Source of the DNA: a virus
DNA: 20,875 bases
Virus record (IMG/VR): IMGVR_UViG_3300046313_000278
Span: 1 to 20,875 of that record
Direction: 5' to 3' (one strand)
The position numbers were made by a program, and so were the translations under genes. Shown here in pieces: positions 1 to 15,321 of this stretch; the stretch's first letter is position 1; the number at the start of each line of letters is the position of its first letter. Below the pieces are notes generated by a model. The model worked only from the letters and a program-made list of their open reading frames with translations. It was not told where the DNA came from and searched no databases.

Positions 1-1610
1 CTCCACGGTTCAAACGAGAATTGCTGGAGAAGAACGGATTCACATCTTTGATTCAAGCAATTGAGTCGGAGTGTGAATCTGTTGGTCTTGGAGACGCGCC
101 TTTGACGGACAAGATTCGAGCTTATTGTAAGAATCAAATGTTTTCTCCAATGTGCAAGATGTGTTCAACCCCATATCGGCTTTGGTCAAACAAACATCAA
201 GCATGGGCCAAATATTGTTCTCAGAAATGTATTCAGAGTGACCCAGAAGTCAAATCTAAAAACTTCTGTGAAGATTATTCCGAACTGGTCAAAAAGCGAG
301 AATCAACCATGTTGGAAAAATATGGCGTGAGTTCTTGGTCACAGACCGAAGAACATAAAACAGCATTTGCAAAACGCACAAAGGAAGCGTGGTCAGACAC
401 TGAGCGTCGGGAACAACGACTTGAGGTTAGAAAGGAAACGAATTTAAAAAGATATGGAGTTTCTGTCGTTTCTCAAGTTCCTGACGTAAAACAAAAACAA
501 CTTGAGACTAAACGTAAGAATAGAGAAAGTTTGTCTGAAGAAGACCGAGAAGTGGCAGATATTGCCAGAAAAAATGCATATCGTAAATCGAGACTTACTC
601 CAGAAGCGCATGCAAAACTGACTTCCTTTGAATTCATGCATGACCTTTACGTGGTCAAGAAGACTCCTGTTATAAGTTGTGCAACTGAGATTGGTTGCTC
701 ACAAGGTTCGATCATAACAGCATTGCGAGAGCTTGGAATTCCTTACGTGCCATATGTCCATAACCAAGAATCTTGGGACGAAATTAAGCTATTTGAGTTC
801 ATCAAATCAATCTGTCCAACAGCCATTAGGACTTACAAGATAGGAAAGCATCTTGACATCTTCGTCCCAGAATTGAAACTTGGATTTGAGTATAATGGTG
901 TTTACTGGCACTCTGATGTGAAGCGTGCCCCAGATCATCATAAGAAAAAAGTAGAACATTTTTACAATCACGACATTCGATACGTTCAAATATGGGAAGA
1001 CGACTGGAAAAATCGACAGGATGTAGTCAAGAAGTTCATCATAAACTTGATCGGAAAGACCAAACGGATTGGGGCCAGAAAAACGACCATTGTTGAATTG
1101 TCTCAACCAGAATTTACAAAATTCATGGATTTGAATCACATGCAAGGTTCGACAGTTTCTTCAGTTAGACTCGGGTTGGTATACGATGGAGAAATTGTTG
1201 CAGCAATGGGGTTTAAAGAAACGGCATCGAACACAAAAATGAAAAATGGGTTTGAGTTAAATCGGTTTGCGAACACAAACGTCAATGGAGCATTTGCAAA
1301 ATTGTTCAAACATTTCGTATCGCTGCGAAACCCACAGTTTGTGTCATCTTTTGGCGACCTCGAAATAATTGATAAACGTAAAAATGTTTACCTATCAAAC
1401 GGATTTGTTCAACATGCGGTCATTGATCCAGACTACCGATACTATGATTATCGAACGAAGATGCGCGAGCATAAGTTTGGTTATAGAAAATCAAAATTTG
1501 CCAAGATTGGTCTTGATATTAAAGGAAAAACTGAACGAGAATTGGCTATTGAATACAAATTGATTCGATGTTATGATTCCGGTAAAATCCAATATATCTG
1601 GAACCAATAA
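1..1610 (+). CDS. Vsr-like / homing-type endonuclease, 5' partial
   Basis: The reading frame is open to the left window edge (codons from base 3), so the true start is outside; at least 535 residues are visible. Numbering from the TTG at base 21, a C45-x2-C48...C66-x3-C70 zinc-finger-like cluster is followed by two repeated modules with a KYGV/RYGV...SQ core (about 96-124 and 140-167) and a helix-turn-helix-like segment (217-241). A Vsr/DUF559-like PD-(D/E)XK core lies at 273-330: LDIFVP with D279, GFEYNGVYWHS with E290, then HHKKK and a QIWEDDW strand. The remaining 180 residues (LGLVYDGEIVAAMGF, ELNRFA) look GNAT/Mom-like, a weak call. Such zinc finger, DNA-binding module and nuclease combinations are typical of phage homing-type endonucleases. 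It points toward gp23, opposite to all neighbours except gp17, which fits an inserted mobile gene. DNA cleavage and homing are inferred. Confidence 0.75.
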   Translation, partial: PRFKRELLEKNGFTSLIQAIESECESVGLGDAPLTDKIRAYCKNQMFSPMCKMCSTPYRLWSNKHQAWAKYCSQKCIQSDPEVKSKNFCEDYSELVKKRESTMLEKYGVSSWSQTEEHKTAFAKRTKEAWSDTERREQRLEVRKETNLKRYGVSVVSQVPDVKQKQLETKRKNRESLSEEDREVADIARKNAYRKSRLTPEAHAKLTSFEFMHDLYVVKKTPVISCATEIGCSQGSIITALRELGIPYVPYVHNQESWDEIKLFEFIKSICPTAIRTYKIGKHLDIFVPELKLGFEYNGVYWHSDVKRAPDHHKKKVEHFYNHDIRYVQIWEDDWKNRQDVVKKFIINLIGKTKRIGARKTTIVELSQPEFTKFMDLNHMQGSTVSSVRLGLVYDGEIVAAMGFKETASNTKMKNGFELNRFANTNVNGAFAKLFKHFVSLRNPQFVSSFGDLEIIDKRKNVYLSNGFVQHAVIDPDYRYYDYRTKMREHKFGYRKSKFAKIGLDIKGKTERELAIEYKLIRCYDSGKIQYIWNQ

Positions 1611-1682: not shown

Positions 1683-3008
1683 TCACAGCAGGTTAGTGAT
1701 TTTGATACGACGATAGAACGCATTGGAGTTAGCTGCCATACCATCGCCAGCAACGGTAGTCGTTGCATAGGGGTGGGCAACGATACCATAGCGGCTCTTG
1801 AACGCAATGCGAGGCTGCATAGAAGCAGGATCAACAGCGCGGAACAGTTGCAGAGGCTGATATGGGCAGTAGAACATACCGGCTTCGTAAGGAGTAGCAC
1901 CTTTACGACCAATGATGGCATAGTGCTCGTTAGCAGCGCCGTTGGCGAGGTAAGGATCGACATACACCTTGAAGCGACCATTCAGGATACCAGCAAAGGT
2001 AGTAGAAGAGTCATCAACGACGTTCACGCCACCGATAGCGGGGTTGTAGTCCAGTTGACCAGTCATTGCCAGAGCAGCAGCCACATCGCTGGAGCAGATG
2101 ATGAAGTTACCACGACCCATACGGGTATCGTGGGAGACGACGTTCGCATCGCGTTCGCAAGCAAACATCAAACCTTTGAACTTTTCCACAGACCAACGGC
2201 CACCGGCATCTTGATCCATGTCAAACAGACCGGGGGTGGTGGTGTATTGTGCGCCAACCTTAGCAGACACGGCAATCGAACGCACAACTTCACGGTTCAT
2301 CTCAGCAGTGATCTCGGTGGAGAGCATGTTGATCAGTTCTTGTTCGGCATCCAGACCATGCAGAGCCTTCAGGTCTTGCACCAGTTCCACAGAGTATTCA
2401 GCACGCAGCGCACGGGTCTTGGCTTCAACGGCTTTCTTCTCAATGGTCAGAGCCATTTGACCGAAAGCATTGCCACCAGCAGAACCCAGAGCTTCGCCAA
2501 CAGCGGTAGACATACCAACGCCATAGGTGAAATCGGTTGCAGGGCTGTTCACGGTATCGTTCAGAACGCCGGGGTTGGTACCACGTTGGGTATCATCTGC
2601 ACCTTGGGTACCAGAACGGGCAGTCTTGTCGCCAGAGAAGGAGCTATCGGCTTCACTGAACAGAGCTTCTTGGCCGGTTTGGTTGCCATAGCGAGCTTTG
2701 GCAGCAAAGATCAAGCCGGTAGGTTGGGTCAGAGGCTGAACACCACACACATCGTATGCAATCAGTTGGGGAGCAGTGCGACGAACCAGACCAATCAGAA
2801 TGGGGTCATACTTGGCAATACCGTTCGAGTCTGCATAGCCACCAACGGAGTTGGTAGGAGCATCTTCAAACAGAGCTTGACGGGATTCCATGTTGGCTTT
2901 TTCTTGGTTTTCCAACAGGATAGCGGTTACCTTACGGCGATAGTCTTCGGTGATAGGGGTCTCACCGGCATCCAGGATGGGAGCCCATTTTTGAACGAGA
3001 GAAGTCAT
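1683..3008 (-). CDS. 23: major capsid protein gp23
   Basis: This 441-aa protein (T4 gp23 is 521 aa; marine relatives are shorter) forms the hexamers of the head shell. The N-terminus has the family signature KWAPIL...ETPITEDYRR...TAILLENQE, followed by conserved blocks such as YDPILIGLVRR and QPLTQPTGLIFA. L46-F47-E48 matches the L/I-x-E consensus of the gp21 protease, so removal of about the first 48 residues is predicted; L31-L32-E33 also fits. The start is supported by an AAGGA ribosome site 7 bases upstream. It is last in the head operon, after gp22, with its own promoter-like box and 5' hairpin at 3033-3062, and it ends before the palindrome and terminator. Its sequence is visibly GC-richer (about 53% in a sampled 60-base stretch) than gp22 (about 33% in a similar sample), consistent with codon selection in the most abundant protein. 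Confidence 0.97.
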   Translation of the reverse strand: MTSLVQKWAPILDAGETPITEDYRRKVTAILLENQEKANMESRQALFEDAPTNSVGGYADSNGIAKYDPILIGLVRRTAPQLIAYDVCGVQPLTQPTGLIFAAKARYGNQTGQEALFSEADSSFSGDKTARSGTQGADDTQRGTNPGVLNDTVNSPATDFTYGVGMSTAVGEALGSAGGNAFGQMALTIEKKAVEAKTRALRAEYSVELVQDLKALHGLDAEQELINMLSTEITAEMNREVVRSIAVSAKVGAQYTTTPGLFDMDQDAGGRWSVEKFKGLMFACERDANVVSHDTRMGRGNFIICSSDVAAALAMTGQLDYNPAIGGVNVVDDSSTTFAGILNGRFKVYVDPYLANGAANEHYAIIGRKGATPYEAGMFYCPYQPLQLFRAVDPASMQPRIAFKSRYGIVAHPYATTTVAGDGMAANSNAFYRRIKITNLL

Positions 3009-3074: not shown

Positions 3075-4133
3075 TCACAAAGCCCTGAGATATGATTGCA
3101 TACGGGGAGACACATTGTCTTCTGTTTCATGGCTTTCCGTAATGGTCACACTCTTTTTCGCAAATTCCTCGGTAATGCTATTCCGTTTGGATTCTTTGCT
3201 AAAAAATGATTCTTTAATGGAATCAAGTTTCTTAACAAATTCTCTTTCGGATTCAAAGACAAATCCTTCGATAAGTGTTTTGAATTTGGCTTTATCAATA
3301 ACCGTGAAATCTTTGACCGTTTCTTCAATGATTTTTTCGCGCTTCATTTCGGCAAGCATTTCATTGGCTTCATCCAATTTTTGCTGAAGTGAACTGAGTT
3401 TGTCGCTCAATTCAGTTTTATCTTCTTGCAATTCAGATACCAACTTAACACCAGCTTCAGGGAGATCAATGCTATGTGCCTCGAATACTCCTTTGATGCC
3501 CATAATAAAAGATTCTGCAATATCGGTCTTGATGCCGCTATCAACGGCAACAATATTATCTGTCATCCACTGTTCGGCCACTTGGGACAAACAACCATCA
3601 ATCTTTTCGCTCAGAACATTTTCCATCTCTGCAATTCGTTCTTCAAAAATTGCAGTCTGATCTTTTGTTTTTGCTTCAAACTCTTCAATGAGAAGTTGTT
3701 CTTTTTTATGGAACTCTTCTTCAATTACTTTGCGAGCATCAACAAGTTTTTCTTCCAAAGCAGCTTCAAAAAGAGCCGTTGCTTTGGTTTTAAATTCTTC
3801 ATTGAATTCTTCAGACAAAACGGAGTCAATCGTATCTTCCTTGACTTCTTTTTTATCTTCGTCTTCGTCTTCTTTTGTTTCCACTTCTGGTTCGGCAGGA
3901 GCTTCTGTTGGCTCTTGTGGAATCAGTGTGGGGTCAATTGGGTTTTCAATTGACACAGGAGGCTCTTCTGGTTCTGCTTCGGCCTCTGGAGCAGTTGCGG
4001 TGGGTGCGGGAGTATCGGCAGCAACAGGTTCTTCATCTTCCATCTTTTTCTTGATGGCTTCCAAGAGACTTTGTTCTTCAGTTTGTTTACCTTCCAGCAA
4101 TGCCTTCAGGTCTTTTTCGAGTTTGGTTGTCAT
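3075..4133 (-). CDS. 22: prohead core scaffolding protein gp22
   Basis: At 352 aa this is longer than T4 gp22 (269 aa). gp22 is the main core scaffold inside the prohead, and gp21 later cuts it to small peptides. The protein is very Glu/Lys-rich with long predicted helices (about 104-180 and 235-325). Family-like blocks include AEQWMTDNIVAVDSGIKTDI, IMGIKGVFEAHSIDLPE and the C-terminal SPRMQSYLRAL. The extra length is a Pro/Glu/Ala-rich, then acidic segment at about residues 35-100 (PAPTATAP, EPEEPP, EDEDEDKKE), likely disordered. Many L/I-x-E tripeptides are present, as expected of a gp21 substrate. It follows gp21 after 17 bases, with TAGGGAA as the ribosome site, and precedes gp23, the T4 order. 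Confidence 0.92.
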   Translation of the reverse strand: MTTKLEKDLKALLEGKQTEEQSLLEAIKKKMEDEEPVAADTPAPTATAPEAEAEPEEPPVSIENPIDPTLIPQEPTEAPAEPEVETKEDEDEDKKEVKEDTIDSVLSEEFNEEFKTKATALFEAALEEKLVDARKVIEEEFHKKEQLLIEEFEAKTKDQTAIFEERIAEMENVLSEKIDGCLSQVAEQWMTDNIVAVDSGIKTDIAESFIMGIKGVFEAHSIDLPEAGVKLVSELQEDKTELSDKLSSLQQKLDEANEMLAEMKREKIIEETVKDFTVIDKAKFKTLIEGFVFESEREFVKKLDSIKESFFSKESKRNSITEEFAKKSVTITESHETEDNVSPRMQSYLRAL

Positions 4134-4150: not shown

Positions 4151-4816
4151 TTACCGAATCTTATTGAGGAAGTCTTGAAATGCTTCCAGTTTTGCTTCTT
4201 GAAGTTTTGCAAGAGGAGCAGACAAAATAATCTGCTGTGCCTCAAATACTTCTCGCTCCATATACATACCATCAACAAAAATGTAGCTTGCTGATTCCAT
4301 CAAATGGTCAACAAACGCATCTGCCACTGATGGGTCATATACACAATCAGCAGCCACTGACAACCGAAAATCGGGTTGAACAATTGTGGTAGAACCTTGT
4401 TTACTGACGGAAGCCAATCCTCGACTGGATACGCCCAATCGAACACCATCTTCGAGCAAATTCTGAAGAATCTTCCCAAGTGGAGTTGACAGAACTTTTG
4501 CTTTTCCATAGAAATGATTTTTGCCATCATTTTCGAGCATTGTTGTCAGAATACATGCGCGTTCTGGATCGACATGAGTGCGCGATCCGGGATGATTCAT
4601 TTCACCGAGTGCCCGTGCAGTTTTGATGTATTCTTTGTCGTATTCTTTGACTGCTTCTTCCATGACCTTTTTTGGATAAATTCGGCCATTGCGGTTCTTT
4701 TTGTCATACATCAAAAATGGACCACTGATATACATCCGTTTTTGTCCATCGGAATCAACGTCACTGGAGATTTCTGCATTGTTTACAGCAATGTTCTGTT
4801 CAAAAATTAGTTTCAT
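4151..4816 (-). CDS. 21: prohead core maturation protease gp21
   Basis: This 221-aa protein (T4 gp21 is 212 aa) is a serine protease of MEROPS family U9/S77 that cleaves scaffold and capsid proteins after L/I-x-E during head maturation. Visible features are the SGPFLMYDKKNRNGRIYP block near residues 31-48, GEMNHP with catalytic H75, LGVSSRG with the serine at 130 or 131, and D157 in SVAADCVYDP as the likely third residue. The H-S spacing (55) equals that of T4 (H85, S140). The ATG overlaps the stop of the upstream 131-aa gene as TAATG, with AGGGG upstream, indicating translational coupling. Confidence 0.95.
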   Translation of the reverse strand: MKLIFEQNIAVNNAEISSDVDSDGQKRMYISGPFLMYDKKNRNGRIYPKKVMEEAVKEYDKEYIKTARALGEMNHPGSRTHVDPERACILTTMLENDGKNHFYGKAKVLSTPLGKILQNLLEDGVRLGVSSRGLASVSKQGSTTIVQPDFRLSVAADCVYDPSVADAFVDHLMESASYIFVDGMYMEREVFEAQQIILSAPLAKLQEAKLEAFQDFLNKIR

Positions 4817-11487: not shown

Positions 11488-11814
11488 TTATTTTCTTGAC
11501 AGCAAGTCTTCAAGTTCTTGGATTCGCTTTGTCGAATCCCGGACTTGTTGCATCAATAGGACGTTTTGATCGTGAATTTCTTTGAGTTGAGCACGAGCCA
11601 ATGTCAGTTCTTCGGACAACAGCGTCACTTGCTTGATTAAGCTATCAATTTGTTGTGTGTGTAATGCACCAGCAGAGGTTACTTCTTCAATGGAAGTTTT
11701 GCGAATAAACAAGTAACCAGCAATCCCAAGCACACCAAATGCAATGATGGCAGAAATCATCTCCGACGTTCCAAGACCAATAATCTTTAGCAGTTCCAAG
11801 AAAAAATCAAACAT
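11488..11814 (-). CDS. small membrane-anchored coiled-coil protein (108 aa)
   Basis: A short N-terminal region is followed by one hydrophobic segment (about residues 18-37, ending in GYLFIRK) and then a long predicted coiled coil (about 52-105) with regular Leu/Ile/Val spacing. By the positive-inside rule the C-terminal coil would be cytoplasmic, which argues against an inner-membrane spanin, though topology from sequence alone is uncertain. GGAG precedes the ATG. It is last of three consecutive membrane-protein genes. A lysis role (holin or accessory) is possible only from size and clustering. Confidence 0.8.
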   Translation of the reverse strand: MFDFFLELLKIIGLGTSEMISAIIAFGVLGIAGYLFIRKTSIEEVTSAGALHTQQIDSLIKQVTLLSEELTLARAQLKEIHDQNVLLMQQVRDSTKRIQELEDLLSRK

Positions 11815-11817
11815 CTG

Positions 11818-12204
11818 TCACTCCAATTTTGATTCTGTTTTAGTCTCCCACATAAACTTCAGAATGTGGATGTTGATAATGAATGCAACGTAATTTGACA
11901 CCGACAGAATCACACAGATCGAGGTCATTGCAATTGATGTTGGGAAGAACAGCGAAGCCATCCAAAACCAGCAAGTTCCATTGATCCATGCCATGAGAAT
12001 TCGAGACAATTCAAGTCTTGGATGGGCAAGTATGGATACAAACTGAATCAGTCCGAACATAATACTTACCATACCAACAACAATCATGGTTTGGAATTTT
12101 ATGACGTCATCGAACATGAAACCAATTCCAAACACAATCATGGCAGCAGCAGATATAAGTTCAGATGAACGTGTATCTTGGGGAAAGAGATTTTTGAGTC
12201 TCAT
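11818..12204 (-). CDS. unknown multi-pass membrane protein (128 aa)
   Basis: About four hydrophobic segments are visible (roughly 17-35, 40-60, 68-87 and 90-112), with a basic start (MRLKNLF) and a charged end (KTESKLE). No family is recognised. The ATG overlaps the stop of the 87-aa gene as ATGA, so the two are probably translated together. Candidate roles include a holin-like or host-membrane-modifying protein. Nothing in the sequence decides between them. Confidence 0.8.
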   Translation of the reverse strand: MRLKNLFPQDTRSSELISAAAMIVFGIGFMFDDVIKFQTMIVVGMVSIMFGLIQFVSILAHPRLELSRILMAWINGTCWFWMASLFFPTSIAMTSICVILSVSNYVAFIINIHILKFMWETKTESKLE

Positions 12205-12464
12205 CGCTTAAATCCAAACAAAGATAATGCACAAAGGAAAGCAATTTCAATTCCGGCTCTAATAGATAGAAGTTCTGGGTCAACGTGATTCATCAAATGA
12301 TACCCAATGATCCAAGAGGACTCCGCGAAAATTAACAACACAGAAGAAATAATTGCCAAGGTCAATACTTGATTATCTCGTCGTCGTCTTTTAAGGGTAT
12401 ATCCAGACGAACAGATAAAAATACAACACATGGCAGTTACCAAGACCAAAACATCGAGTATCAT
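12201..12464 (-). CDS. unknown small membrane protein (87 aa)
   Basis: Three hydrophobic segments (about 2-22, 34-54 and 67-84) are separated by a strongly basic loop (KRRRRD at about 25-30), which should be cytoplasmic. The ATG overlaps the stop of the 637-aa gene as ATGA, and its own end overlaps the 128-aa gene in the same way. No family is recognised. Size and partners are compatible with a lysis or membrane-defence cassette, which remains a guess. Confidence 0.78.
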   Translation of the reverse strand: MILDVLVLVTAMCCIFICSSGYTLKRRRRDNQVLTLAIISSVLLIFAESSWIIGYHLMNHVDPELLSIRAGIEIAFLCALSLFGFKR

Positions 12465-14374
12465 TTCTTAAACGCCCTCAGATAGCGTTCCATGTCTGTC
12501 TGTTCAGCAACATGGAAGTTATGATTTGCCTTCAGACCAGCATGAACGTCTGGGTGATCGAGGTCTGATGTAGATCGAGCCTTGATTTTGTCATAGACAG
12601 ATTTGAACTTGGTCAGTTTGGCAACATGCATATGCAGTTGAACATGACTATCAGACAAATCATTTCCTTCGTTGTCATGCCCACCAGTCAATAGCATTTG
12701 TGAAGTCAATTCGTGTTGAATTGCTTCGCCATTTTTGTTTTCATTGGTTCCATTTATCAAACTTGCTGCGTGACCATATCCCAAGTCTGGGTGATGATAG
12801 ACTTCATGGGCCAACTTTGCATCGGCATATTTTCCCATATGTTCCATGACTGGATGTGATTGGAAAGTGGAGTCTCGCTCGTCCTCATTGTTATTGAGAA
12901 TCGTATGCATCAATCGCGGATTTTTGGTGTGGTTCAACAGATACCGAGACTGTCCGGGATTCAAGTCGCTATAATAGTCTTCGTGGCTTGGTGTTGCAAT
13001 GTGTCCAAGAGCAACATCACCAGCAGCATCCCATTCTTTTGATTTGCCGGTATGTGACAAAACATGGTCAATCAAGTCGTGATGAGCATCTCCCATCAAT
13101 GATCTTGTTTTGGACTCATAGTCGGCTCCTTGATAGTCCTTGGCTTCATTGTGCAGCTTTCCAAGGAGTTCAATTGACTCGCCGGGGCCAAAATCCTTGA
13201 ACGGACTTTTCCTTCGACCAAACATCTTATCTGCATTCTCTGCAGCGTAACTGTGCAACATCTTATCCTCGACATTATTGTCGTGGATGTCTCGATAATC
13301 CAAGTCTTCATCGGCATTCTTAATCAAATGATGTACAATTGAATGAACCTTATCCTTTTCTGAAATTTTGTCATGGATGTCGGCAATCTTTTGTTGGATT
13401 CCATCTCCATCATCATCAGGCCCATCGGGATGTTTGTCCCATTCCCAATTGTCGTGTGTGTTTCGAGCAGCCTTTACTGCATGATATACAGCAGATTCAA
13501 TATCTCTATGCATCTTTTCGGAATCACTGTGTGATTTTTCCATCAACAGATTTTTCCCATCATCATTGTAGAGTTCTGGGTTTTTTTGATAAAATCCTTC
13601 TTTGGAGGGATACTTTTCATCTGCCCATGAACTAACTTGTGAATGGAATCCCCTTGGAGCAGCCCCATACACTCCATTTTCAGGTCTCCAAATTTTGTGA
13701 CCTTCGTTATAGAATTGTTTGATGCTTATTCGACCAAGAGGATTTTTGTCAGGGTCTTCTCCCTTTTTGACCAAATATGCAGCAAGTGTGTGATTTGCAA
13801 TATCTTTTGGGAGATAGTGTTTATTACTTCCACCATCCATATCCATACAAGATGACCAACCACGGTCAGTTGATACACCAGCAACATCATATTTGTTTTT
13901 GCTGATAACAATTTCTTTTGGAGTCTTGGCTGCACCGCGAACTGGGTCAGCAGCATACACTTGAGACAAAGACATTGGCTTACCTTTATTGGCTCCAGTC
14001 ATTGTCAGTTTTCTTGTCCATTTATCATGTTCTCCAGTCAACAGAGAACCAATGCGATATTTCCGCTTCGGATCGGATTCGTGATATGCTGTTCCCGATA
14101 CATAATCGTCGGTCTTATATCCACGGTCAGAAAGAGCATTTAAGACGATATTGTGATGTGCATCCCAACGACCAGTTTGACCGGACCGAGTAATCGGTTC
14201 ATCTTTAGAGTCATCATATGGGATGCGAATTCGGTCAGTGTCTCCAAAGACTTCTTTGTGCGGATTACCATACTGATACCAACTGTCAACTTTTTTCTTT
14301 TGTTCGTCAGTCAATGCTTCGGACAAAAGTTCAATTGATTCGGCAATAAATTCTGGACTAAAATCTTCTTCCAT
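12461..14374 (-). CDS. unknown 637-aa protein, possible packaged internal protein
   Basis: I do not recognise a characterised function. Residues 1-25 (PEFIAES then LLSEA) resemble the capsid-targeting segment of T4 internal proteins (which begin MKTYQEFIAEA), with L/I-x-E sites. Residues 160-245 hold a compact block with TDRGWSSCMDMDGG (C176), NHTLAAYLVKKG and GRISIKQF; from memory, similar W-x-S-C-M blocks occur in other uncharacterised phage proteins. The middle and C-terminal parts are His/Asp/Asn-rich, with helical segments (about 430-600) that could be HEAT-like repeats. It is about the size of T4 Alt (682 aa), an injected enzyme, but I see no ADP-ribosyltransferase motif. It begins after an AAAGAAAGAG stretch and heads the membrane-protein genes. 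Confidence 0.85.
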   Translation of the reverse strand: MEEDFSPEFIAESIELLSEALTDEQKKKVDSWYQYGNPHKEVFGDTDRIRIPYDDSKDEPITRSGQTGRWDAHHNIVLNALSDRGYKTDDYVSGTAYHESDPKRKYRIGSLLTGEHDKWTRKLTMTGANKGKPMSLSQVYAADPVRGAAKTPKEIVISKNKYDVAGVSTDRGWSSCMDMDGGSNKHYLPKDIANHTLAAYLVKKGEDPDKNPLGRISIKQFYNEGHKIWRPENGVYGAAPRGFHSQVSSWADEKYPSKEGFYQKNPELYNDDGKNLLMEKSHSDSEKMHRDIESAVYHAVKAARNTHDNWEWDKHPDGPDDDGDGIQQKIADIHDKISEKDKVHSIVHHLIKNADEDLDYRDIHDNNVEDKMLHSYAAENADKMFGRRKSPFKDFGPGESIELLGKLHNEAKDYQGADYESKTRSLMGDAHHDLIDHVLSHTGKSKEWDAAGDVALGHIATPSHEDYYSDLNPGQSRYLLNHTKNPRLMHTILNNNEDERDSTFQSHPVMEHMGKYADAKLAHEVYHHPDLGYGHAASLINGTNENKNGEAIQHELTSQMLLTGGHDNEGNDLSDSHVQLHMHVAKLTKFKSVYDKIKARSTSDLDHPDVHAGLKANHNFHVAEQTDMERYLRAFKK

Positions 14375-14398: not shown

Positions 14399-14818
14399 TT
14401 ACTTAGCAAAACGAATACAATCAGCCGGAAAATAATCTTCGGGACATTCTGCTCCCAATGCACCAGCAACAATCTCTGAGCAAAATTCTTGACCGTTCTT
14501 TTGTGGGACAAATGGGATGATGAATCGAACGATTCCCCACCAATCGTAACTGTTTCCGAGTCGCTCAATCATATAAGCCAATGCAAACTGTTCGTCCCCT
14601 TCAACATCAACCACATCCCATTTGCCGGAATTCAAGTCAATTATTTTTGAACGAACTCCACCATCACGGGAAGAACTTGAGTAGCATTGTCCATCAATAA
14701 CCAATTCAACATGAGAGTATTTGCTAAACGATCTGGCACAAATTGCCCAATGAGAAATCCAATGGACAAAATCTTTGTTGATTGAAGGTGGGCCTTTGTA
14801 TAGAGCTATTTTCATCAT
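14399..14818 (-). CDS. permuted papain-like (NlpC/P60 superfamily, YiiX-type) protein
   Basis: This 139-aa protein has the layout of circularly permuted NlpC/P60 enzymes. A His-containing strand YSHVELVIDG (H36, E38) comes first, and a later helix carries the nucleophile in EFCSEIVAGALG (C113). Between them is an ARLGxxYDWWGI-like segment (here ERLGNSYDWWGI), typical of the family. Members are thiol amidases, esterases or acyltransferases; in phages the substrate is generally unknown. It has no signal peptide or membrane segment. Its first ATG overlaps the 2H phosphoesterase stop as ATGA. A cell-wall or lipid-directed role in infection or lysis is possible. Confidence 0.8.
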   Translation of the reverse strand: MMKIALYKGPPSINKDFVHWISHWAICARSFSKYSHVELVIDGQCYSSSSRDGGVRSKIIDLNSGKWDVVDVEGDEQFALAYMIERLGNSYDWWGIVRFIIPFVPQKNGQEFCSEIVAGALGAECPEDYFPADCIRFAK

Positions 14819-15321
14819 TCGTTCCAGTCCTCTTTGACAGTAGTTGAATCAAAACCAGACAAAACAACAGGCTTTCCGATAACATCAGAAGCATTCAATT
14901 TCTCAATAAGAGATTTTGCTTCATCGGTATTCACATCATAGAACAAGGTTAGATGTGGTTTGAAATCATTGTACGAGTGTTTCAACCCTTCCATCTTGAG
15001 GTATTCGTGGATTTTACTCAATCCCGAATCTTCCAACTCCAAAACGATACACGTCACTCCATCTTCTTCTGAATCAAATCCAGACGCATGTGAGATTTTT
15101 GTTTCGATTTTGTTCGGAAACTTCTTTTCAACATTTCTCTTGATGGTATTTGGGTTTCGAGTCGATTCTTTTGAATACATCAATGTTACGTGAAACTCTT
15201 TTGAAATCTTTCCTGTTTTTGGTTCAATTTCAATTTTAGGCATGGAAGAAACACCAATAGAAACGTAGTTTCCTTTCTTGGTGTCAGTTGCTTCTTTGAG
15301 GTAATTGAGAAATATGTTCAT
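14815..15321 (-). CDS. 2H phosphoesterase (LigT/cyclic phosphodiesterase-like)
   Basis: This 168-aa protein carries two H-x-T motifs in the expected strands: EFHVTLMY (H44, T46) and KPHLTLFY (H123, T125). This pair defines the 2H superfamily, whose members hydrolyse cyclic phosphates or 2'-5' linkages in RNA, NAD-derived metabolites or cyclic oligonucleotides. T4 Acb1 (57B), an anti-CBASS enzyme that degrades cyclic nucleotide messengers, belongs to this superfamily. The N-terminus MNIFLNYLKEA resembles the T4 capsid-targeting sequence and has L-K-E before Ala, a possible gp21 site, so packaging in the head is conceivable. Both ends overlap neighbours as ATGA. The substrate cannot be read from sequence. 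Confidence 0.85.
   Translation of the reverse strand: MNIFLNYLKEATDTKKGNYVSIGVSSMPKIEIEPKTGKISKEFHVTLMYSKESTRNPNTIKRNVEKKFPNKIETKISHASGFDSEEDGVTCIVLELEDSGLSKIHEYLKMEGLKHSYNDFKPHLTLFYDVNTDEAKSLIEKLNASDVIGKPVVLSGFDSTTVKEDWNE

What the first reader, a model, noticed from the sequence alone, without database searches (positions are those of the whole stretch)
12461..14374. 637-aa unknown protein with a capsid-targeting-like start and a W-x-S-C-M block
Residues 8-20 (EFIAES then LLSEA) strongly recall the T4 internal-protein signal EFIAEA and offer two L/I-x-E sites. The size is near that of T4 Alt, which is injected. A compact block around C176 (GWSSCMDMDGG) looks like a conserved, possibly catalytic domain. 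Together with the 2H protein this suggests a cluster of packaged effectors near the fibre genes.
Basis: partly seen in the sequence, partly recalled or inferred. Interest (0 to 1): 0.65.

Follow-up and report, generated by a model that had tools for sequence, protein, structure and literature searches.

The report
Phage protein with probable packaging tag
A T4-like virus of bacteria encodes a 637-residue protein of an undescribed, widespread phage family whose N-terminus looks like the removable address tag that T4 uses to load proteins into its head and deliver them with its DNA; unrelated neighbouring enzymes carry matching tags, so it is probably a packaged effector, although no one has looked for it in virus particles.

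Summary
The ORF and both features are real. Residues ~20-280 form a conserved domain (…HPYDIAGMSTDRGWTSCM…GTLvAYLI…P.aR..KPF; C176 in 71/71 relatives) of unannotated proteins in jumbo and T4-like phages, joined to varied C-termini (HEAT, DUF4116, WG, kinase-like). Profile, PDB-sequence and fold searches found no known family. Directly before the domain, 38 relatives outside the Lu11/JA/Erwinia jumbo group keep the T4 gp21-type site: I/L at P3 (33/37), anything at P2, E at P1 (32/38). Unrelated ORFs share such leaders in phages with a gp21-like protease (27/1353 starts versus 32/7801 internal windows). They include the window's own 2H phosphoesterase and, elsewhere, Nudix, Acb1-like, nitrilase and nucleotidyltransferase enzymes. 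Jumbo phages lacking a detectable gp21-like protease use a different shared leader (MKIQLAVA-/MEIxVSLS-type), again on both this family and unrelated proteins such as ADP-ribosyltransferases. Best reading: a packaged, N-terminally trimmed, DNA-co-delivered effector. Packaging, cleavage, injection and biochemical activity are all inferred; no virion data were available. This copy lacks the otherwise near-invariant HP before YD, so 'catalytic' is unsupported for it.

The parts
12461..14374 (-). 637-aa protein: leader + conserved 'STxRxWxSCM' domain + helical C-terminus
14318..14374 (-). N-terminal leader, residues 1-19, candidate capsid-targeting propeptide
   Evidence: alignment of 71 relatives; low model confidence before residue ~19
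14339..14347 (-). candidate protease site IAE12|S13 (T4-like EFIAE), not aligned across relatives
   Evidence: sequence
14318..14326 (-). candidate protease site LSE19|A20, the position conserved as (I/L)xE in relatives outside the Lu11/JA/Erwinia group
13535..14317 (-). conserved domain, residues ~20-280
   Evidence: AlphaFold2 model pLDDT 83.5 over residues 1-296
13844..13903 (-). signature block, residues 158-177 (SKNKYDVAGVSTDRGWSSCM)
   Evidence: S158, D163, S168, T169, W173, C176, M177 identical in 71/71; N160 and K161 replace H and P of 70/71
12464..13531 (-). C-terminal module, residues 282-637, probably helical repeats; no relative found outside this virus
14815..15321 (-). 168-aa 2H phosphoesterase (Acb1 / 2'-5' RNA ligase superfamily), probable second leader-bearing cargo
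   Evidence: Pfam Acb1 4.7e-13; leader match
15292..15321 (-). leader of the 2H protein, MNIFLNYLKE before A11
4151..4816 (-). gp21-like prohead protease (Peptidase_S77), presumed processing enzyme
   Evidence: PF03420 1e-39 in the sibling contig of the same virus
1683..3008 (-). gp23-like major capsid protein
   Evidence: PF07068 9e-132 in the sibling contig
3075..4133 (-). gp22-like head scaffolding protein
   Evidence: phrog_237 3.1e-49

Best explanation
The protein is a head-packaged, DNA-co-delivered effector of a T4-like phage. Its ~19-residue leader directs it into the scaffold core; the phage's gp21-type protease trims it, most likely after LSE19 (possibly also IAE12); the mature protein is stored in the head and enters the cell with the genome. 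There the conserved STxRxWxSCM domain, joined to a helical-repeat targeting module, would act early against host defence or metabolism, as T4 IPI-III and Alt do. Shown: ORF, domain family, conserved (I/L)xE position, shared leaders on unrelated proteins, and a gp21-like protease, scaffold and capsid gene in the same virus. Inferred: targeting, cleavage, packaging, injection and the biochemical role.
For: In 38 relatives outside the Lu11/JA/Erwinia group the residues just before the domain read I/L (33/37), any, E (32/38), mostly A (24/38); the P2 column has high entropy (3.3 bits), as expected for a protease site. E19 is invariant in the 20 full-length relatives. Unrelated ORFs share the leader: pooled over six S77-positive records 27/1353 starts versus 32/7801 internal windows (p=1e-8); in records examined after the pattern was fixed, G016 p=3e-4, G014 p=0.01, G021 p=0.045. 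In G016 the family member (M.IYKDFYSDIVE) and three unrelated proteins (MKYKEFYKDILTE, MKYKDFYSYLFE, MKYKDFYKQLLNE) share one genome-specific leader, two of them a Nudix and an Acb1/2H protein. T4 control: the strict pattern hits 8 of 244 ORFs, among them ipII, ipIII, gp24 and the injected DNA-end protector gp2; the loose one adds Alt, gp68, gp21 and gp22. In a 1552-aa relative the domain is internal and still preceded by SIYE-E. Jumbo phages without a detectable S77 protease put their own different leader on this family and on neighbours including an ADP-ribosyltransferase (PF18760 2.4e-27) and a Nudix. T4 internal proteins share only their packaging leader (PMC12373910).
Against: No virion proteomics exists for this virus, and none that could be read names a relative. 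The protein itself matches only the loose leader pattern. Patterns were framed after looking at some of the data. P1=E versus presence of an S77 protease (labels read by hand) gives 12/14 versus 4/13, p=0.006, but exact (L/I)xE versus S77 was not significant (p=0.24, in which one record was mis-scored; corrected by hand 9/14 versus 4/13, still unlikely to be significant), and relatedness is not corrected for. Two S77-positive records have no E at that position (LLAK). S77-negative Yoloswag shows a small excess of the E-type leader (4/304, p=0.003). The segment could partly be the first turn of the domain's N-terminal helix.
Confidence: 0.62

Rival explanations
1. An intracellular late protein, neither packaged nor injected; the (L/I)xE-A stretch is only the start of the domain's first helix and the shared leaders reflect recombination between gene starts.
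For: Helix predicted just after residue 22 and weakly at 7-17; the L21 column is hydrophobic in both groups; no virion evidence.
Against: P2 is random while P3 and P1 are fixed; in Lu11-group phages P3 and P1 change together to S/A, so neither residue is needed for the fold; the same leaders sit on proteins with unrelated domains.
Confidence: 0.22
2. A head or core structural component (like gp67/gp68) that is packaged and trimmed but has no role in the new host.
For: T4 core proteins gp22, gp68, gp21 and gp24 match the same leader patterns; the helical repeat C-terminus could be structural.
Against: Patchy distribution, up to four copies per record, changing C-terminal modules and enzyme neighbours with the same leader look like accessory cargo.
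Confidence: 0.1
3. A phage-borne relative of the PcfJ domain or of GNAT acyltransferases acting in the cytoplasm.
For: Order of conserved elements (C, Y, G.tlI, P, W) resembles PcfJ by eye; weak Foldseek hits to PcfJ-like proteins (E~0.1) and GNATs (best E 0.16).
Against: Profile comparison with PcfJ is at chance: 32 of 100 column shuffles score as high; PF14284 finds nothing in the window and no member of the family lists it.
Confidence: 0.06

Closest known systems
T4 internal proteins IPI-IPIII with capsid-targeting sequence (MKTYQEFIAEA)
   Same: Short N-terminal leader with (I/L)xE-A/S near residues 9-19, same kind of head genes and gp21-like protease, leader shared by otherwise unrelated proteins
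   Different: Leader sequence differs; protein is 637 aa instead of about 95-193; no homology after the leader; packaging not demonstrated
T4 Alt (packaged, injected ADP-ribosyltransferase)
   Same: Comparable size; head-associated effector idea; ARTs occur among leader-bearing neighbours of relatives
   Different: No ART domain detected here; different domain and different N-terminus
Polyvalent proteins (Iyer et al. 2017, PMC5512222)
   Same: Modular phage proteins thought to enter with DNA; a 1552-aa relative joins this domain to several others; ART-PolyVal proteins are neighbours
   Different: I did not find this domain named in the passages read; the window protein has at most two recognisable modules
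PHROG families 17056 / 18912 (unknown function)
   Same: Same conserved domain in jumbo phages (hits up to 8e-169 for some relatives)
   Different: No function known; the window protein is too divergent to match them directly

Membership tests
T4-type CTS-bearing internal proteins | Leader of 10-20 residues ending in a gp21 site (L/I)xE | tested here: met
   IAE12 and LSE19; position of LSE19 conserved in relatives
T4-type CTS-bearing internal proteins | Leader shared with unrelated proteins of the same phage | tested here: inconclusive
   In this virus only the 2H protein clearly shares the type (1/36 ORFs, p=0.098); clear in G016 and G002
T4-type CTS-bearing internal proteins | gp21-like protease, gp22-like scaffold and gp23-like capsid in the same genome | tested here: met
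T4-type CTS-bearing internal proteins | Presence in heads, trimmed N-terminus, delivery into the cell | not testable with these tools
   needs virion proteomics and infection assays
Alt / ADP-ribosyltransferases | ART catalytic domain | tested here: not met
   no Pfam or PHROG ART match; no ART among the structure hits listed
PcfJ (PF14284) | Profile match to the PcfJ domain | tested here: not met
GNAT acyltransferases | GNAT fold with acyl-CoA-binding loop | tested here: inconclusive
   only weak Foldseek hits, E >= 0.16, TM (query) <= 0.27
STxRxWxSCM domain family of jumbo and T4-like phages | Invariant S158, D163, S168, T169, W173, C176, M177, Y200, P212, R215 | tested here: met
   but the HP of the HPYD signature is NK here

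The most novel reading that the evidence does not exclude
Large phages mark effector cargo with lineage-specific N-terminal address tags: an (L/I)xE-ending tag where a gp21-like protease is present, and in the Lu11/JA/Erwinia jumbo group a different tag (M[KE]Ix[LV][AS]x[AS]) with no glutamate, on about seven non-family proteins per genome including ADP-ribosyltransferases and Nudix hydrolases. The second would be a new type of capsid-targeting signal, and the STxRxWxSCM domain a cargo family that acquires whichever tag its host phage uses.
Probability: 0.4. Interest if true: 0.78.

Novelty: new variant of a known kind. Interest (0 to 1): 0.6.

Why it matters
If right, packaged effectors of non-model phages could be read directly from gene starts. 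It predicts specific head-stored enzymes (2H/Acb1-like, Nudix, ART, nitrilase, nucleotidyltransferase and this unannotated family) that would act before any phage gene is expressed, for example against cyclic-nucleotide or NAD-based defence, and it predicts exact mature N-termini that one proteomics run on cultured phages such as Lu11, JA13 or Yoloswag could confirm or deny.

Tried and rejected
Pfam, PHROG and PDB-sequence searches for a function: none. PcfJ membership, suggested by an eye-level motif match, rejected by profile comparison and a shuffle test. GNAT relationship left open. Relatives of the C-terminal half: none outside this virus. Cellular relatives: the one pattern scan of GTDB genomes found none. 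Virion proteomics of relatives in the literature: the Atu_ph07 study reports 131 virion proteins but its list could not be read; the PaBG virion table shows no leader on the two unknowns whose N-termini were checked, gp261 and gp263; the Dickeya JA text holds no proteomics; the Lu11 announcement is not held. Correlation of exact (L/I)xE with S77 presence was not significant; only P1=E was.

Full report
What is there. The window is part of a T4-like phage: its terminase is closest to cyano- and pelagiphage-type T4-like phages (49% to Synechococcus phage BUCT-ZZ01), and gp23-, gp22- and gp21-like genes are present. The 637-aa ORF is as described. It lies two genes from a 2H phosphoesterase (Acb1 family, 4.7e-13) whose product begins MNIFLNYLKEA, between fibre-like genes and three small, apparently membrane or coiled-coil, proteins.

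The domain. tblastn finds residues ~39-305 in 40 annotated phage records, all of them large (254 kb or more) and nearly all labelled 'hypothetical protein' or unannotated. A profile scan of IMG/VR gives 93 matching stretches, of which 76 distinct loci were returned. Across 71 aligned sequences R48, S158, D163, S168, T169, W173, C176, M177, Y200, P212 and R215 never vary. The window copy departs from near-invariant positions at N160 (H in 70/71), K161 (P), V167 (M), and also at H195 and E206. Up to four copies occur per record. C-terminal parts vary: HEAT/LRV repeats in L015, L021 and L035, a polynucleotide-kinase-like part in L027, DUF4116 and WG repeats in others. The window's own C-terminus has no relatives and is modelled as helical repeats with low confidence. 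AlphaFold2 folds the N-terminal 296 residues well (pLDDT 83.5), but Foldseek finds only its own family plus weak GNAT and PcfJ-like hits, and PcfJ is not supported by profile comparison. A scan of 84,980 bacterial and archaeal genomes found no cellular relative (pattern-based, so not exhaustive).

The leader. Relatives begin almost directly at the domain, so the N-terminus is short. In 33 members of the Lu11/JA/Erwinia group the same columns are S/A, L/T/V, S/A, A. The four annotated phages of that group that were searched lack a detectable Peptidase_S77 and gp23.

Unrelated proteins share these leaders. Using a T4-like pattern, 27 of 1353 non-family ORFs in S77-positive records match at the start versus 32 of 7801 internal windows; the Lu11-type pattern gives 21 of 1120 versus 7 of 7224 in the S77-negative set. 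The patterns were fixed; G016, G014, G021 and W04 were fetched afterwards and confirm them individually (p 3e-4, 0.01, 0.045 and 1e-5), while G006 does not. An anomaly is that Yoloswag (S77-negative) also has 4 E-type leaders (p=0.003). In G016 a genome-specific leader (M.YK[DE]FY...) is common to the family member, a Nudix hydrolase, an Acb1/2H protein and a 269-aa protein without a Pfam match; elsewhere leader-bearers include a nucleotidyltransferase, a nitrilase-like enzyme, ART-PolyVal ADP-ribosyltransferases and another Nudix. In Lu11 and JA13 many of these genes are adjacent to the family genes.

Control. In T4 the strict pattern picks 8 of 244 ORFs, of which four are packaged or gp21-processed (ipII, ipIII, gp2, gp24); the loose one picks 17, adding Alt, gp68, gp21 and gp22. 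Roughly half of matches in T4 are therefore head, core or injected proteins; ipI was not recovered. The window protein matches only the loose pattern, the 2H protein also the strict one.

Interpretation. The most economical reading is that this family is accessory cargo that carries the packaging leader of whichever phage it lives in. T4 precedent: internal proteins share only the leader, are injected, and block host restriction (PMC12373910; PMC3012670); giant phage SPN3US also has paralogues with identical N-termini carrying AxE/SxE sites (PMC5694885). A leader ending in S/A has no precedent that I know of among prohead-protease sites, so whether the Lu11-type leader is cleaved at all is open. 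The biochemical role of the domain remains unknown; the company it keeps (NAD-, ADP-ribose- and nucleotide-handling enzymes) makes counter-defence or host takeover likely, as inference only.

Limits. ORFs were called mechanically and starts taken as the first ATG; relatedness among phages was not corrected for in the tests; the P1=E versus S77 labels were set by hand; one record was mis-scored in the exact-site test. No virion data were available.

Noticed in passing
W02 (Pseudomonas phage Lu11) 154-170 kb; W01 (Dickeya phage JA13) 152-165 kb; W04 (Erwinia phage Yoloswag): Clusters of unrelated proteins beginning MKIQLAVA-, MEIxVSLS- or similar, including ADP-ribosyltransferases and a Nudix hydrolase; a shared leader without glutamate.
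   Followed up: partly
L022:4174-8832: 1552-aa multi-domain protein with a YunG-like segment (PF24585, 1.4e-4, below cut-off), this domain internally, LRV/HEAT-like repeats, and (L/I)xE at two inter-domain junctions (IKE-A, IYE-E).
   Followed up: partly
window 14399-14818 (-): 139-aa protein between the target and the 2H gene, matching phrog_1128 (2.7e-32; labelled enoyl-CoA hydratase-like, doubtful); by eye it resembles a NlpC/P60-like cysteine hydrolase.
   Followed up: no
window 11488-12464 (-): Three small genes after the target; the 108-aa one weakly matches Rz-like spanins (phrog_739, 3e-4), the other two look like membrane proteins: possible lysis cassette.
   Followed up: no
window 3-1610 (+): ORF open at the window's left end, matching DUF7487 (4.6e-8) and resembling a homing-endonuclease-like protein, on the strand opposite to the capsid gene.
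   Followed up: no
G006:C1:87208-87778; G014:C1:68091-68700; W03:C1:84396-85149: Proteins of 190-251 aa that look related and start MKKFEQFLAES, MKNFKEYLAES, MKTLQDYLTES: close look-alikes of the T4 targeting sequence in three different phages.
   Followed up: no
KF147891 (PaBG) PaBG_00228: LigT/2H protein starting MQIKVAMYSAEAANK close to the prohead protease gene; another 2H protein with a possible leader.
   Followed up: no
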